Of a DNA stretch of 47,996 nucleotides, positions 4,090 to 26,819 are shown piece by piece. How positions within the stretch are numbered: position 1 is the stretch's first letter; every line of letters begins with the position of its first letter. A program made the translations under genes and the position numbers. The stretch comes from an uncultured Selenomonadales bacterium (lineage in GTDB: Bacteria; Bacillota; Negativicutes; Selenomonadales; Selenomonadaceae), in assembly GCA_947307055.1 (NCBI GenBank), contig CAMZHX010000017.1:1-47996 (forward strand), read 5' to 3'. The notes beneath the pieces were generated by a model. The model was not told where the DNA came from. It saw only the letters and a list, made by a program, of their open reading frames with translations, and did no database searches.

Positions 4090-7000
4090 ATGCTCGTTTC
4101 CGATAAATTTTTCTCCGATTCAACTCACAAATCTACTATTTTCTCCCCCGCGCAAATAAATTTCCTCGAAACTAACGCTTACACCAAAATTATTCGCGGT
4201 AAACCCACTTTTTTTATCAAATGCCTCGTTCGCGGCAAAGAAATTCGCCTCACACCCGAAGAAGCCGTTCGACAAATGTTTATTCGCAAATTAATCGACG
4301 ATTACGGCTATAAAATCGCTCAAATGGCTGTCGAACACCCAATTAAATTCGGTAGAGAGACTAAACGCGCTGATATTGTCATTTTTGAACCAAATAATCC
4401 GACCGTCGAATATATTATCGTCGAAGTTAAGAAGCCTAAGCTAAAAGACGGCAAAGAACAACTCAAATCTTACTGCAATGCAACCGGCGCGCCTATGGGC
4501 GTATGGTCAAACGGCGAAAAAATTTCTTTTTATCACCGCAAAGACCCTAATTACTTTGAAGATATTCCAGATATTCCTAAATACGGGCAAAAATTAAAAG
4601 ATATTCTACGCGAACGCCGTACAATCGCTAATTTAATCGCCGATGATAAACTTTTGCGCGAAAATAAAACTCTAGCCGATTTAATTCGCGAACTTGAAGA
4701 CGAAGTGCTCGCTAATGCCGGCGTCGACGTCTTTGAAGAGGTTTTTAAGCTAATTTATACCAAACTTTTCGACGAAATGCTCAGCGGGCGCGATAAATCC
4801 AGATTTTTGGAGTTTTGGAACTACGGAGAGAGCGATAACCAATTAAAAGATACGATTCAAACAATTTTCGACCGCGCTAAGGATAAATGGCCTGGAGTTT
4901 TCGCCGCTGATGATAAAATTAAGCTAACTCCGTCGCATTTGGCTATTTGCGTCTCTTCTCTGCAAAATGTTAAGCTTTTTAATTCAAATCTCGACGTTAT
5001 CGACGACGCTTTTGAATATTTAATGACTAAATCGCAAAAAGGCGAAAAAGGGCAATTTTTTACGCCTCGTTACGTTATTGATATGTGCGTTCGCATGTTA
5101 AATCCTAAAATTAACGAAACTATGATTGATACTGCAGCGGGTTCGTGCGGTTTTCCGGTTCATACGACTTTTTTTGTCTGGAAAAATATTTTAAACGCTA
5201 AAAATATCCCACAAAGTCATCTTTTTAGCCTGGAACGTAAGCCGCAAGAGTGCGAAGACTACGTTAGCAAGAATATTTTCGCGATTGATTTCGATGAAAA
5301 GACAGTTCGAGTGGCTAGAACGCTGAATTTAATCGCCGGCGACGGAAAAACTAACGTTTTGCACCTAAACACGCTTGATTATGAACGTTGGAACGAAATT
5401 ATTGATGAAGATTGGCTAGATATTTACAATGACGGCTGGAAGGGCTTAAGAAAACTCCGCGCCGCTAAAAATGACAACTCGAAATTTAATTTTGATATTG
5501 TAATGGCTAATCCGCCGTTCGCTGGCGATATTAAGGAGAGCAGAATTATTGCAAAATACGAATTGGGCAAAAATTCTCGCGGAAAATATCAATCAAAGGT
5601 CGGGCGCGACATACTTTTTATTGAACGCAACCTTAATTTTCTAAAATCTGGCGGGCGAATGGCGATTATTTTGCCGCAAGGGCGTTTTAATAACTCAAGC
5701 GATAAATATATTCGCGATTTTATTGCTGAACGCTGCAGAATTCTTGCGATAGTCGGTTTGCACGGAAATGTTTTTAAACCGCACACCGGAACTAAAACTA
5801 GCGTGCTTTTTGTGCAGAAATGGGACGAAAAACTTTGTCCATATCGCGAAGATTACCCGATTTTCTTTGCGACCATGCGCGAACCGTCAAAAGATAATTC
5901 CGGCGATAAAATTTTAGAATATGACGGCGAAAAACTCCTGCGCGACGACCATAATCACACAATCGTTAAGCACGACCTTTTTAATCACGACGGAAAGACT
6001 AAAGACGGCATCGCGGAGGCTTTTATTGAATTTGCCAAGCGCGAAGGGCTAAGTTTTTTTGAGCAAAGCTCCTTCGACGCCGCTAAATATAAAATTTTGT
6101 CGGAGGAGCTTGAATTCACAGAGATTTTTTTATCAGAATTAAACGAAGAACATAGATTAGACGCTGAATATTTTTCAAATCTCGCAATGCAAACAGATTT
6201 ATTTATCAAATCACGAAAACATTTTTATCTAAGTAAATCTTCTGTAGTTAGCGGACCTTTTGGCTCAACTTTGACAAGTTCATCGTATCTTAAATCCGGA
6301 ATTCCGTTTGTAAGGATTGAAAATATACGTGGAAGCTTTCGTATCAACACAACGGATATAATTTACATATCTGCAGAAGATAATTTACGAATTTTAAATT
6401 CTCAGCTGTTCACGGACGATATAATTTTATCTAAAGTTGGAAATTCAATCGGATTTTTTGCACGAGTAGACGAAAAACTTTCAAATTGCAATATCAGCGA
6501 AAATAATATTGGAATTAAGCTCGGAAGTTTCGATAAAGCAACACGACATTTTATTTTGACGTATCTGAACAGTAAATTTGGGCAGATATTGATTTTAAGA
6601 AGGCGAAGCGGAAATGCTCAGCCAAAACTTAATGTTGATGACGTTTGCAAGGTACCTATACCAGAATTTAGTGATGATTTTTATAAAATTATCAGCTCAT
6701 TTATTTTGAAAAGCGATTTTATAAGCGAGCGAGCCGACGAAAACTATCACGCGGCGGAAAAAATATTGTCATCGGCATTGAACTTGGAAAATTTTAAACC
6801 GAGTAGCGAAAACGTCGCGATAAAAAGTTTCAGCGCGTCATTTTCAGTTAGCAGACGCCTTGACGCTGAATTTTATCAGCCAAAATACGACGACTGGAAA
6901 AATTTAATGAATATTGCGGGCACGGTCGGCGAACTTTGCAGAATTCACGACAAAAATTTTATGCCGAAGCCTAAAACGATTTATAAATACATTGAACTTG

Positions 7001-25555: not shown

Positions 25556-25583
25556 TGCAATCGCTCCAGAAAATGAAATCTAC

Positions 25584-25612
25584 TTGAAAAGAAATCGTTC
25601 ATGATTTATAAT
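25584..25612 (+). promoter_or_regulatory. Promoter of peptide unit A
   Basis: TTGAAA (25584-25589), 17 nt, TATAAT (25607-25612). Transcription would start near 25619, at the GCTTGA that pairs with the 3' end. Confidence 0.85.
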
Positions 25613-25679
25613 ATGCTCGCTTGATGCCTTGCGGCAGGGCGGTTTAAATCCAAAGCCCCCAGAAAGGGGGCGGATAGTG

Positions 25680-25754
25680 ATGATAAAGGTTATAATTCGT
25701 GTGATTATTCTCACCGTCATAATCCTCTTAATCCTCACAAGAACAGCCGCCTAA
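25680..25754 (+). CDS. 24-residue hydrophobic peptide A (candidate type I toxin)
   Basis: ATG at 25680 to TAA at 25752-25754. The peptide is one hydrophobic Ile/Leu/Val stretch with Lys3 and Arg7, closing with LTRTAA. Size and composition match membrane-acting type I toxins, but it is not recognisably a member of a named family. The G-rich Shine-Dalgarno is 9 nt upstream inside a hairpin. Peptide B shares VI...IIRV and the TAA (Thr-Ala-Ala) end. Confidence 0.7.
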   Translation: MIKVIIRVIILTVIILLILTRTAA

Positions 25755-25867
25755 GCCTTCCCACAGCATAGCGGCTGAATCTTGTTTCATCTGTCTATAT
25801 AAGTCGGGGGCTAAACCGCCTTCAAGCAATTTTCGCCTCGCAACTCGCGAGGTATTTTTTATCTGTC
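25740..25867 (-). ncRNA. Predicted antisense RNA to unit A
   Basis: Predicted from the opposing promoter to the hairpin CAGCCGC/GCGGCTG (25744-25777), which spans the stop codon of peptide A. It would be about 130 nt and fully complementary to the 3' untranslated region and last codons of the mRNA. The exit after the hairpin (TTCTTGT) is a poor U-tract, so its end is uncertain. Confidence 0.5.
25836..25860 (+). terminator. Terminator of unit A
   Basis: CCTCGC/GCGAGG stem with a 5-nt loop, then TATTTTTT. The identical sequence closes unit B. Confidence 0.85.
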
Positions 25868-25873
25868 AGCAGA

Positions 25874-25902
25874 ATTATAATCGACAAGGAGAATTTTTGC
25901 AA
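25874..25902 (-). promoter_or_regulatory. Opposing (antisense) promoter of unit A
   Basis: On the minus strand TTGCAA (25897-25902), 17 nt, TATAAT (25874-25879). Transcription would begin near 25867 and run back across the 3' half of the peptide A mRNA. The segment is a duplicated piece of trpG that no longer codes for anything here, yet both boxes are intact. Confidence 0.65.
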
Positions 25903-25922
25903 GCAGTAAAAATGAAAGTCAC

Positions 25923-25951
25923 TTGAAAAGTAGTAGCAGATATTTTATAAT
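25923..25951 (+). promoter_or_regulatory. Promoter of peptide unit B
   Basis: TTGAAA (25923-25928), 17 nt, TATAAT (25946-25951); same boxes and spacing as unit A although the spacer sequence has changed. Confidence 0.85.
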
Positions 25952-26020
25952 GTGCTCGCTTGATGCCTAGCGGCAGGGCGGTTTAAATCCGTAGTCTCCC
26001 CCAGAAAGGAGATGAGGATT

Positions 26021-26101
26021 ATGCGCGTGATTAAATTTATTATCCGCGTGACATTGCTTACGGGAGCAATCCTGCTCCTTCTCAGCAAAACAGCCGCCTG
26101 A
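26021..26101 (+). CDS. 26-residue hydrophobic peptide B (candidate type I toxin)
   Basis: ATG at 26021 to TGA at 26099-26101, with GGAG 9 nt upstream. An in-frame ATG at 26012 lies too close to the Shine-Dalgarno. The peptide has a basic N-terminus (Arg2, Lys5, Arg9), a Leu-rich membrane stretch and the ending LSKTAA. It aligns with peptide A at its IIRV core and C-terminus but differs elsewhere, so the two may no longer be interchangeable. Confidence 0.7.
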   Translation: MRVIKFIIRVTLLTGAILLLLSKTAA

Positions 26102-26124
26102 GCCCCACTCAAAGCGACTGTTTT
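26087..26124 (-). terminator. Minus-strand terminator inside unit B (antisense RNA / trpEG read-through)
   Basis: On the minus strand CAGTCGC pairs GCGGCTG with one G-U, extended by AAAA/TTTT, and ends in TTTT. On the plus strand the same position is a C-A mismatch, so it is built for minus-strand RNA. It is the first canonical terminator after trpG. Confidence 0.65.
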
Positions 26125-26222
26125 AAGTAATCCTTATTATTTTCGACACTTAGATATAGTCGGGGGTAAACCGCCTTCAAGCAATTTTCGCCTCGCAACT
26201 CGCGAGGTATTTTTTATCTGTC
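26088..26222 (-). ncRNA. Predicted antisense RNA to unit B
   Basis: Bounded by the opposing promoter and the minus-strand terminator. It covers the 3' untranslated region and the last codons of peptide B, including the TAAACCGCC segment needed for the 5'-3' closure. It also overlaps the very end of trpG. Confidence 0.5.
26191..26215 (+). terminator. Terminator of unit B
   Basis: CCTCGC/GCGAGG stem, 5-nt loop, then TATTTTTT. It abuts the stop codon of the convergent trpG. Confidence 0.85.
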
Positions 26223-26819
26223 AGCAGAATTATAATCGACAGGGAGAATTTTTGCAAGCTCCAAAAAGTTTTTCATCATTACGCCCCCTTGAGGAGTCAA
26301 AATCGATTCGGGGTGAAATTGAATCCCTTCCACGTCGAAAACTTTGTGGCGCACGCCCATAATAGTCCCGTCGTTAAGTTCGCTCGTAATCTCTAGGCAA
26401 TCGGGCAAAGTCTCGCGCTCGATAATCAGCGAATGATAACGCCCGACCTCGACGCCCTGCGCAAGTCCGCGATAAAGCCCTTTGCCGCTGTGAATCAATC
26501 GCGACGTTTTGCCGTGAACAATTTCCTTTGCACGAATGATTTTTCCGCCGAAAACTTCGCCTATCGCTTGATGACCTAAACAAATGCCCAAAATCGGCAA
26601 CGCGCCCTTAAGTTTATCAATCAACTCCTCCGAAATGCCCGCGTCACTCGGCACGCCCGGACCTGGCGAAATTATCACGGCGGAGAAATTTTTCACCTCG
26701 TCGACAGAAATTTTATCGTTGCGCACGACTTCGACCGCCGCGCCCAATTCCGACAAAAGTTGATAGACATTGTAAGTAAACGAATCGTAGTTATCAAGGA
26801 GTAAAATTTTTTTAGCCAT
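26214..26819 (-). CDS. trpG: Anthranilate synthase glutamine amidotransferase subunit
   Basis: 201 residues of class I glutamine amidotransferase. The catalytic Cys is in LGICLGHQAIGE, and His and Glu are in GIQFHPESILT; LLLDNYDSFTYN is the family's N-terminal signature. It supplies ammonia to TrpE and could also serve PabB in folate synthesis. The start at 26819 overlaps the trpE stop by 8 nt and has GGAGG 9 nt upstream. The last 45 bp hold the opposing promoter of the small-peptide unit and are duplicated at 25861-25904. Confidence 0.92.
   Translation of the reverse strand: MAKKILLLDNYDSFTYNVYQLLSELGAAVEVVRNDKISVDEVKNFSAVIISPGPGVPSDAGISEELIDKLKGALPILGICLGHQAIGEVFGGKIIRAKEIVHGKTSRLIHSGKGLYRGLAQGVEVGRYHSLIIERETLPDCLEITSELNDGTIMGVRHKVFDVEGIQFHPESILTPQGGVMMKNFLELAKILPVDYNSADR
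26229..26257 (-). promoter_or_regulatory. Opposing promoter of unit B inside the trpG 3' end
   Basis: On the minus strand TTGCAA (26252-26257), 17 nt, TATAAT (26229-26234), all inside the last codons of trpG. It would give an antisense RNA starting near 26222 and ending at the 26087-26124 terminator, about 135 nt. Confidence 0.6.

What the first reader, a model, noticed from the sequence alone, without database searches (positions are those of the whole stretch)
25571..26259. Tandem pair of type I toxin-antitoxin-like modules with no recognised family
Each unit has a consensus promoter (TTGAAA-17-TATAAT), a folded leader, a frame for a 24-26 residue basic-hydrophobic peptide, a terminator, and a consensus opposing promoter (TTGCAA-17-TATAAT) firing into its 3' half. 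This is the full architecture of a type I toxin-antitoxin locus. The peptides do not look like a Hok, Fst, Ibs, TisB or AapA member known to me, so it may be an undescribed family.
Basis: partly seen in the sequence, partly recalled or inferred. Interest (0 to 1): 0.88.

Follow-up and report, generated by a model that had tools for sequence, protein, structure and literature searches.

The report
BsrG-like toxin-antitoxin pair in Quinella
Two tandem copies of what looks like a small self-toxin module (a tiny membrane peptide whose messenger is probably silenced by an antisense RNA) sit in a rumen bacterium; the peptide family appears undescribed, but the RNA layout matches a known system of Bacillus.

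Summary
Window 25571-26259 carries two tandem units of about 345 nt, 77% identical, each with a sense promoter, hidden Shine-Dalgarno site, 24/26-aa hydrophobic basic peptide, terminator and consensus opposing promoter. The genus is inferred to be Quinella (Selenomonadaceae). A model of the unit matches 57 of 66 genomes of the genus (1-20 matches each). The peptide frame is under purifying selection (median dN/dS 0.29, 83 peptides). Opposing promoters of at least 10 of 12 matches occur in 69 of 85 units (0.7% of shuffles). The leader pairs with the 3' UTR, and the pairs covary. A hairpin at the stop codon would end the antisense RNA at 130-140 nt, so it would cover only the mRNA's 3' half. This is the plan of txpA/RatA and bsrG/SR4. 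The window units match no Pfam, NCBIfam or Rfam family, yet a model built without Hol_Tox loci ranks 13 of 13 Hol_Tox/BsrG loci tested above everything else in those loci (the weakest narrowly). Best reading: type I toxin-antitoxin modules on a BsrG-like RNA scaffold with an undescribed peptide. Transcription, antitoxin action and toxicity are untested.

The parts
25584..25612 (+). unit 1 sense promoter TTGAAA-17-TATAAT (predicted start ~25619)
   Evidence: kept in relatives
25619..25646 (+). unit 1 leader: 25619-25624 (GCTTGA) and 25638-25645 (GGCGGTTT), the 5' arms of the 5'-3' closing helix, around a small GCC..GGC hairpin
   Evidence: sequence; MFE fold; covariation
25655..25671 (+). unit 1 SD hairpin GCCCCC-AGAAA-GGGGGC; hides the Shine-Dalgarno run
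25680..25754 (+). unit 1 peptide frame, 24 aa MIKVIIRVIILTVIILLILTRTAA
   Evidence: purifying selection in the family
25744..25777 (-). unit 1 hairpin over the stop codon; proposed antisense terminator (arms 25744-25750 / 25771-25777), tail on the minus strand TTCTTG
25806..25827 (+). unit 1 3' closing element: AAACCGCC 25813-25820 pairs 25638-25645; TCAAGC 25822-25827 pairs 25619-25624
25835..25860 (+). unit 1 sense terminator and T run
   Evidence: terminator stem covaries
25874..25902 (-). unit 1 opposing promoter TTGCAA-17-TATAAT; predicted antisense RNA ~25867 down to ~25737 (about 130 nt)
   Evidence: RNA ends inferred
25923..25951 (+). unit 2 sense promoter TTGAAA-17-TATAAT
25958..26215 (+). 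unit 2 predicted toxin mRNA, about 258 nt, with the same leader, SD hairpin, closing element and terminator (26190-26208)
26021..26101 (+). unit 2 peptide frame, 26 aa MRVIKFIIRVTLLTGAILLLLSKTAA
26087..26124 (-). unit 2 hairpin over the stop codon, proposed antisense terminator
26229..26257 (-). unit 2 opposing promoter TTGCAA-17-TATAAT; predicted antisense RNA ~26222 down to ~26080 (about 140 nt); it also encodes the last codons of pabA
   Evidence: RNA ends inferred

Best explanation
Each unit is a type I toxin-antitoxin module working like B. subtilis bsrG/SR4 and txpA/RatA. Shown by sequence and comparison: a unit of ~240-260 nt codes for a 24-26 aa basic, very hydrophobic peptide under purifying selection; its Shine-Dalgarno run sits in a hairpin; its two ends are complementary and covary (5'-3' closure); a conserved opposing promoter lies just past the sense terminator; and a hairpin at the stop codon is often followed by a T-rich tail on the antisense strand. 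Inferred: the opposing promoter makes a ~130-140 nt antisense RNA that stops at the toxin's stop codon, pairs with the whole 3' UTR and last codons of the mRNA, opens the 5'-3' closure and marks the mRNA for RNase III decay. Also inferred: the peptide inserts in the membrane and stops growth when antisense falls behind, and the SD hairpin and 5'-3' helix keep new transcripts silent until they are paired or degraded. Tandem copies probably arose by duplication, and divergence of the peptides and 3' UTRs may reduce cross-silencing.
For: Homologues: 57 of 66 genomes of the genus match R1 at E<=0.01, 286 matches when the table is summed, partial ones included; own genome 4 strong copies plus one weak match at E 0.003. 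Coding: median dN/dS 0.29 in frame against 0.79 and 1.68 in shifted frames, 83 peptides, 1860 of 3403 possible pairs used; pooled pN/pS 0.50 against 0.84 and 1.37. Promoters at least 10 of 12: sense 79 of 85, opposing 69 of 85, against 1.4% and 0.7% of shuffles. RNA: 36 named pairs, 92.9% of cells paired, 17 pairs with double-sided changes, 0 of 500 shuffles as high, slid controls 34-46% paired; the end-to-end helix has 5 of 6 pairs with double-sided changes. Closure of at least 10 expected pairs in 70 of 81 units. Stop-codon hairpin with at least 4 T of 8 on the antisense side in 59 of 84 against 33 of 84 on the sense side; Hol_Tox 10 of 10 against 6 of 10. BsrG likeness: R2 ranks 13 of 13 Hol_Tox/BsrG loci first (E 4e-10 to 0.014; next off-site hit 0.024; separate control best 0.17). 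The published antitoxins of txpA, bsrG and others pair with the 3' ends of the mRNAs over 100-140 bp (PMC6562991 section 2.2, read).
Against: No transcript, antitoxin or growth data; the Quinella units come from fragmented draft genomes, the named ones MAGs. The SD run is predicted paired both in the full-length and in the 3'-truncated RNA (about 20% unpaired in each), so no translated state was found. The antisense terminator tail is weak in 25 of 84 units. Within the KTAA group a leader pairs hardly better with its own 3' UTR than with others' (-35.1 against -33.5; own in top 5 of 118 for 6 of 85), because both are near invariant. Profiles of leader, ORF or 3' end alone find few Hol_Tox loci (3, 1 and 1 of 13 in place), so likeness to BsrG rests on the combined model. 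Four of 112 distinct units had no frame called (L070, L084, L135, L163); L070 and L084 look broken. The related sequences share descent, so shuffle controls overstate independence.
Confidence: 0.82

Rival explanations
1. A small membrane peptide with a housekeeping or stress role, controlled by a cis-antisense RNA, that is not toxic at natural levels (a regulator rather than a toxin).
For: The same anatomy would be expected; purifying selection on the peptide; no toxicity data.
Against: 0-20 matches per genome, tandem arrays and presence or absence at a given site between species fit a dispensable addiction-like element better; peptides of quite different sequence sit in the same scaffold.
Confidence: 0.1
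2. A mobile or selfish repeat (small non-autonomous element) whose spread, not a toxin function, explains the copies; the peptide is a passenger.
For: Many dispersed copies per genome; at the pabA-larE junction G012 has no insert while the window has two units flanked by similar TTTTTGGAG/TTTTCTGGAG stretches.
Against: In-frame purifying selection and both promoters kept. The inverted repeats found in the region are largely those of the 5'-3' closure; I did not search for a transposase. It may be true in addition to the toxin-antitoxin reading.
Confidence: 0.05
3. A dual-function or trans-acting small RNA: the sense RNA acts by base-pairing and the frame is incidental.
For: Strong conserved structure; near-invariant leader GGCGGT.
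Against: dN/dS 0.29 against 0.79/1.68; 108 of 112 distinct units have a hydrophobic frame at SD distance.
Confidence: 0.03

Closest known systems
bsrG/SR4 (Rfam RF01412 BsrG; SPbeta prophage of B. subtilis)
   Same: Leader complementary to the 3' UTR (duplex -47.3 kcal/mol), SD in a CCCC..GGGG hairpin, small hydrophobic peptide, hairpin at the stop codon after an A run, sense terminator followed by an opposing TTGCAA-18-TATAAT promoter; antitoxin binds the 3' end (PMC6562991 section 2.2, read).
   Different: Toxin is 38 aa and unrelated by eye; the window units give no RF01412 match even at E<=10; R1 sees the SPbeta locus only at E 0.26, R2 at 0.014.
Hol_Tox (Pfam PF16935) loci across Firmicutes
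   Same: Same order of parts by eye; own leader:3' UTR pairing in the top 5 of 118 for 9 of 10 loci that could be parsed; 6 of the 12 fetched loci (L255, L260, L262, L263, L264, L266) match RF01412.
   Different: Peptide family: the window's genome G000 had no PF16935 match.
txpA/RatA (B. subtilis skin element)
   Same: Antitoxin and mRNA pair at their 3' ends, RNase III decay (PMC6562991 section 2.2 read, further passages).
   Different: Not compared by sequence here; longer toxin (recalled).
aapA/IsoA (Helicobacter) and hok/Sok
   Same: 5'-3' long-distance interaction of the toxin mRNA (passages of PMC6733600).
   Different: Peptides differ (recalled); antisense lies opposite the 5' part there (recalled for aapA), opposite the 3' half here.
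ibs/Sib (E. coli)
   Same: Very short hydrophobic peptide (19 aa IbsC, passages of PMC8309996); repeated copies (recalled).
   Different: No Sib match in the Rfam search of the window; overlap of antisense with the whole frame there (recalled).

Membership tests
type I toxin-antitoxin (general) | short hydrophobic peptide with ribosome-binding site, truly coding | tested here: met
   (GRAVY median 1.73, net charge +3 over 85 peptides)
type I toxin-antitoxin (general) | opposing promoter for a cis antisense RNA overlapping the toxin mRNA | tested here: met
   as sequence only; no transcript seen
type I toxin-antitoxin (general) | peptide stops growth when expressed | not testable with these tools
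   needs an experiment
type I toxin-antitoxin (general) | antisense RNA neutralises at the RNA level | not testable with these tools
   needs an experiment
BsrG RNA family RF01412 | reaches the Rfam gathering score | tested here: not met
   no RF01412 match for the window units
Hol_Tox PF16935 peptides | peptide matches the Pfam model | tested here: not met
BsrG/TxpA-type architecture | 5'-3' closure of the mRNA and SD in a hairpin | tested here: met
   bsrG locus itself
BsrG/TxpA-type architecture | antisense RNA limited to the 3' half, ending at the stop codon | tested here: inconclusive
   promoter position shown; end inferred from a hairpin with a T-rich tail in 59 of 84 units
BsrG/TxpA-type architecture | common descent of the RNA scaffold | tested here: inconclusive
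   whole-model detection 13 of 13, pieces mostly not
ibs/Sib, hok, aapA families | match to a curated RNA or protein family | tested here: not met
   no family of these libraries matched above threshold; it was not checked which of these toxins the libraries hold

The most novel reading that the evidence does not exclude
The Quinella units are one branch of a Firmicutes-wide type I scaffold: a self-closing mRNA with a built-in opposing promoter and a stop-codon hairpin that ends the antisense RNA. In it the RNA chassis is what is inherited, and the toxin peptide has been replaced several times: IIxRV..TGxILL..KTAA in Quinella, M..YDF..KA in other Selenomonadaceae, NETNVTL..QKK, Y-G..ILVLI..AIKKK in viral contigs, Hol_Tox in Bacillus and other Firmicutes.
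Probability: 0.45. Interest if true: 0.68.

Novelty: new variant of a known kind. Interest (0 to 1): 0.52.

Why it matters
It would add an undescribed toxin family, matched in 57 of 66 genomes of a rumen genus, and a wider set of scaffold-sharing units in 157 of 189 Selenomonadaceae genomes (R2), to a kind of system reported so far from Proteobacteria, Firmicutes, Tenericutes and lately Cyanobacteria (PMC12390103, abstract and passages). It also suggests that such systems are better found by their RNA scaffold than by their peptides, which are too short and variable for protein searches: R2 found Hol_Tox loci that were not used to build it, and 13 of the 65 places it lists in a phylum sample coincide with PF16935 places.

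Tried and rejected
Protein families: no match for the window peptides in Pfam or NCBIfam even at E<=10 (the first query began one codon late, at 25683 instead of 25680, and the second at the earlier ATG 26012; the exact 26-aa peptide of unit 2 was, also without a match). Peptides of relatives gave nothing relevant either: 7 of 8 had no Pfam family and one (from L182) two sub-threshold hits, 0 of 6. PHROGs gave three unnamed weak hits at E 0.19-0.27 for one of 4 peptides, taken as chance. Rfam at E<=10 on the two units gave five sub-threshold hits (best Clostridiales-2, 20.3 bits against 58.6), taken as chance.

Contig pattern: 52 stretches. Seven were printed; L198, L203, L213, L229 and L238 show no unit and were rejected, L222 (Candidatus Merdivicinus) and L224 (Quinella sp. 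1Q7) do show one. The other 45, mostly Selenomonadaceae or Selenomonadales by title, were not printed one by one; many were scanned by profile. All 5 viral-contig hits show a unit. One viral-contig peptide was not found in the annotated phage collection.

An attempt to see 3'-truncation free the SD site failed: it stays paired. A leader-to-stop-segment alternative pairing rises after truncation (median 0 to 1.85 pairs, IQR 0.18-7.3) but too unevenly to claim a switch. Profiles of separate parts did not carry the BsrG link. Literature: searches pairing (type I) toxin-antitoxin with Negativicutes, Quinella, Selenomonas, Selenomonadaceae and rumen listed nothing that looked like a description of this system in the held open library; that is not proof of absence. 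The T1TAdb and Fozo 2010 papers are not held; PMC11264685 does not contain the words I looked for.
Full report
What is there. The region between larE and pabA/trpG of the window holds two head-to-tail units of about 345 nt, 77% identical. Each has, in order on the + strand: a promoter TTGAAA-17-TATAAT; a leader GCTTGATGCC..GGC..GGCGGTTT; a hairpin that contains the Shine-Dalgarno run (GCCCCC/GGGGGC in unit 1, TCTCC/GGAGA-type in unit 2); a frame of 24 or 26 codons; a hairpin over the stop codon (ACAGCCGCCT..GCGRCTG); a 3' element TAAACCGCCTTCAAGC complementary to the leader; a terminator; and, on the - strand, TTGCAA-17-TATAAT firing back into the unit. Both predicted transcripts fold far better than dinucleotide shuffles (z -5.5 and -6.5, 0 of 200).

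Where it comes from. Genome G000 has 56 contigs and is unnamed. A same-genus genome, G060, has a contig of 11150 bases with a unit at 4325-4574; the named record JADEZP010000090.1, Quinella sp. 1Q7, has the same length and a pattern match at 4432-4553. I therefore call the genus Quinella; this is an inference from contig length and position. Centipeda periodontii DSM 2778 (record of 2749943 bases) corresponds in the same way to G301, a same-family genome, so the family is taken as Selenomonadaceae.

Distribution. By blastn over 60 genomes, strong relatives occur only inside the genus; the 23 genomes of other families gave no match better than E 0.014. A sequence model of 45 transcript units (R1) matches 57 of 66 genomes of the genus at E<=0.01, 286 matches when the table is summed, partial ones included. 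In a class sample, which includes genomes of the genus, it matches 71 of 300, and in a phylum sample 20 of 299, mostly weak. A second model (R2, 43 units including other Selenomonadaceae and viral contigs) matches 157 of 189 genomes of the family at E<=1e-5 and 37 of 299 of the phylum at E<=1e-4. Arrays of two or three full units, some with a partial one beside them, are seen (L060, L061, L068). Nine genus genomes, four of them at least 90% complete and at most 5% contaminated (G067, G003, G073, G004), show no R1 match: the module looks dispensable.

Is the peptide real? Of 257 profile hits in the fetched loci, 202 were long enough and inside the locus, and 112 remained after removal of duplicates; 108 have a hydrophobic frame, all starting 7-12 nt after the SD run (distances of 3-13 nt were allowed). 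Four had none called (L070, L084, L135, L163). I split the 108 into 85 ending in T-A-A-like residues and 23 others; the 23 include three Quinella peptides ending KIAA. For 83 of the 85 (length at least 24 aa) the median dN/dS is 0.29 in frame and 0.79 and 1.68 in the two shifted frames (1860, 2091 and 2006 pairs); the pooled pN/pS is less extreme, 0.50, 0.84 and 1.37. The start and the last three columns were left out. R at alignment column 11, I at 19 and L at 20 are kept in 82, 82 and 81 of 83. Net charge is +3 and GRAVY 1.73 at the median of the 85.

Is the opposing promoter real? In the 85 units the best opposing site reaches at least 10 of 12 matches in 69, against 0.7% of shuffles; the sense site in 79, against 1.4%. 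In the 23 others the figures are 18 and 15, against 1.3% and 0.4%. Common descent contributes to this, so the comparison with shuffles is not a probability; but the distant group has mostly another -35 (TTGACA/TTGACG, 15 of 23) while keeping both sites.

RNA structure. On the 45-unit alignment I named 36 pairs in six helices. 92.9% of cells pair, 17 pairs show double-sided changes (shuffle mean 8.1, 0 of 500 as high), and sliding the partners by 1-3 columns drops pairing to 34-46%. The end-to-end helix 1-6/282-287 has double-sided changes in 5 of 6 pairs, for instance U-A to C-G in 8 sequences; the second closing helix has them in 2 of 8. RNAalifold on its own kept the second closing helix and the terminator but not the first. 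Thermodynamically the closure has at least 10 expected pairs in 70 of 81 KTAA units and 15 of 18 others; 4 and 5 units were left out because no good promoter or no 3' motif was found. A swap test gives the same message across groups and not within the close group: own leader:3' UTR energy against same-group swaps is -51.8 against -33.6 for Hol_Tox (own in the top 5 of 118 for 9 of 10), -45.5 against -38.2 for the others (14 of 23), and -35.1 against -33.5 for KTAA (6 of 85) (10 of 12 Hol_Tox loci were parsed, one of them, L265, with an over-long start).

How far does the antisense RNA reach? A hairpin starts at or before the stop codon in 84 of 84 KTAA units in which one was found (85 examined), in 17 of 23 others and in 9 of 10 Hol_Tox loci. 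The eight bases after it hold at least four T on the antisense strand in 59 of 84 and on the sense strand in 33 of 84; others 17 against 8 of 23; Hol_Tox 10 against 6 of 10. So I infer that the antisense RNA begins near 25867 (unit 1) and 26222 (unit 2) and ends at the stop codon, about 130-140 nt, covering the whole 3' UTR but not the SD site. A by-product of this reading: the A-rich codons at the end of many of these peptides (Lys) may be kept partly because they are the T run of the antisense terminator. That is a proposal, not a result.

Comparison with known systems. Six of 12 fetched Hol_Tox (PF16935) loci match Rfam RF01412, BsrG. Reading the 12 by eye shows a leader, an SD hairpin, a stop-codon hairpin and a 3' complement of the leader in the same order; their opposing promoters were not scored. 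The bsrG locus of SPbeta has them too: SD hairpin CCCCTATGAAAGGGG, 3' element complementary to the leader, A run and hairpin at the stop codon, opposing TTGCAA-18-TATAAT promoter beyond the terminator. Model R1, built only from Quinella units, already puts ten Hol_Tox/BsrG places first (E 2.7e-5 to 0.26); two more come after one off-site hit and L258 is missed. R2 puts all 13 of 13 on top, E 4e-10 to 0.014, though the weakest (SPbeta, 0.014) is close to the next off-site hit (0.024). In 83 kb of larE loci used as control nothing is better than E 0.17. In the phylum sample 13 of the 65 places listed for R2 coincide with Hol_Tox places. Models of leader, ORF or 3' end alone mostly fail (in place for 3, 1 and 1 of 13), so I leave open whether the scaffold is inherited or convergent; the control also did not contain other small hydrophobic genes. 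In the review PMC6562991 (section 2.2 read, other passages seen; [quoted passage not shown] PMC6733600 (passages) describes the 5'-3' long-distance interaction of aapA mRNA and likens it to hok. PMC12390103 (abstract and passages) says type I systems had been found only in Proteobacteria, Firmicutes and Tenericutes before its cyanobacterial case. Other passages seen: PMC6563280, PMC8309996.

Context. In the window the order is trpE, pabA/trpG, two units, larE, trpS, with the four genes on the - strand (NCBIfam names). Of 30 larE loci read (the window's own included, up to 1.5 kb each side, some cut by contig ends), only the window and G024 have a unit beside larE, and only the window and G012 have pabA beside it. 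In G012 pabA runs straight into larE; in the window the last codons of pabA are read from unit 2's opposing promoter, and a short TTTTTGGAG-like stretch lies on both sides of the array. The antisense strand of both units has the direction of these genes, so read-through from trpE-pabA would add antisense RNA; this is inference.

Verdict. The peptides are, as far as these searches reach, an undescribed family; the RNA plan is that of the BsrG/TxpA systems. Function as toxin and antitoxin remains to be shown by experiment.

Noticed in passing
window 26214-26260 and L275 2270-2340: The PabA/TrpG frame of the window ends with about a dozen codons read from unit 2's opposing promoter; in G012 (L275) the same gene ends ..NFLEKF and abuts larE, an empty site. 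TTTTTGGAG / TTTTCTGGAG flank the array in the window.
   Followed up: partly
L250-L254 (viral contigs): Five contigs of the viral collection carry units with a different peptide (M-D/E-Y-G-x-IILVLI..AIKKK or MEYIIALIVILVLIDCIHNGRKGK); L252 has two close together.
   Followed up: partly
L158-L175, L184, L193-L196: Many units of other genera seem by eye to lack a separate sense terminator hairpin; a T run follows the 3' closing element directly, so the end-to-end helix itself may be part of the terminator.
   Followed up: no
L189, L190, L191: A subclass in Quinella with a changed stop segment (e.g. GGCCAGCTAAGC) and peptides ending TAS or TVS; the opposing site looks weaker at its -10 by eye.
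   Followed up: no
G066 (20 matches) and G032 (17 matches): Two genomes hold unusually many matches, the best only at E about 1e-16 to 1e-18, so diverged copies; they were not read. L094, a diverged unit of another genome (G007), codes for MSKFYVMMIVIIAILWLLSGKAA.
   Followed up: no
L178, L179, L181 (G556): Units in a genome outside the class code for peptides of a different style (e.g. L179, MIRITLHLGFITISIEFERRKNRR, translated by eye) in a scaffold of the same order.
   Followed up: no
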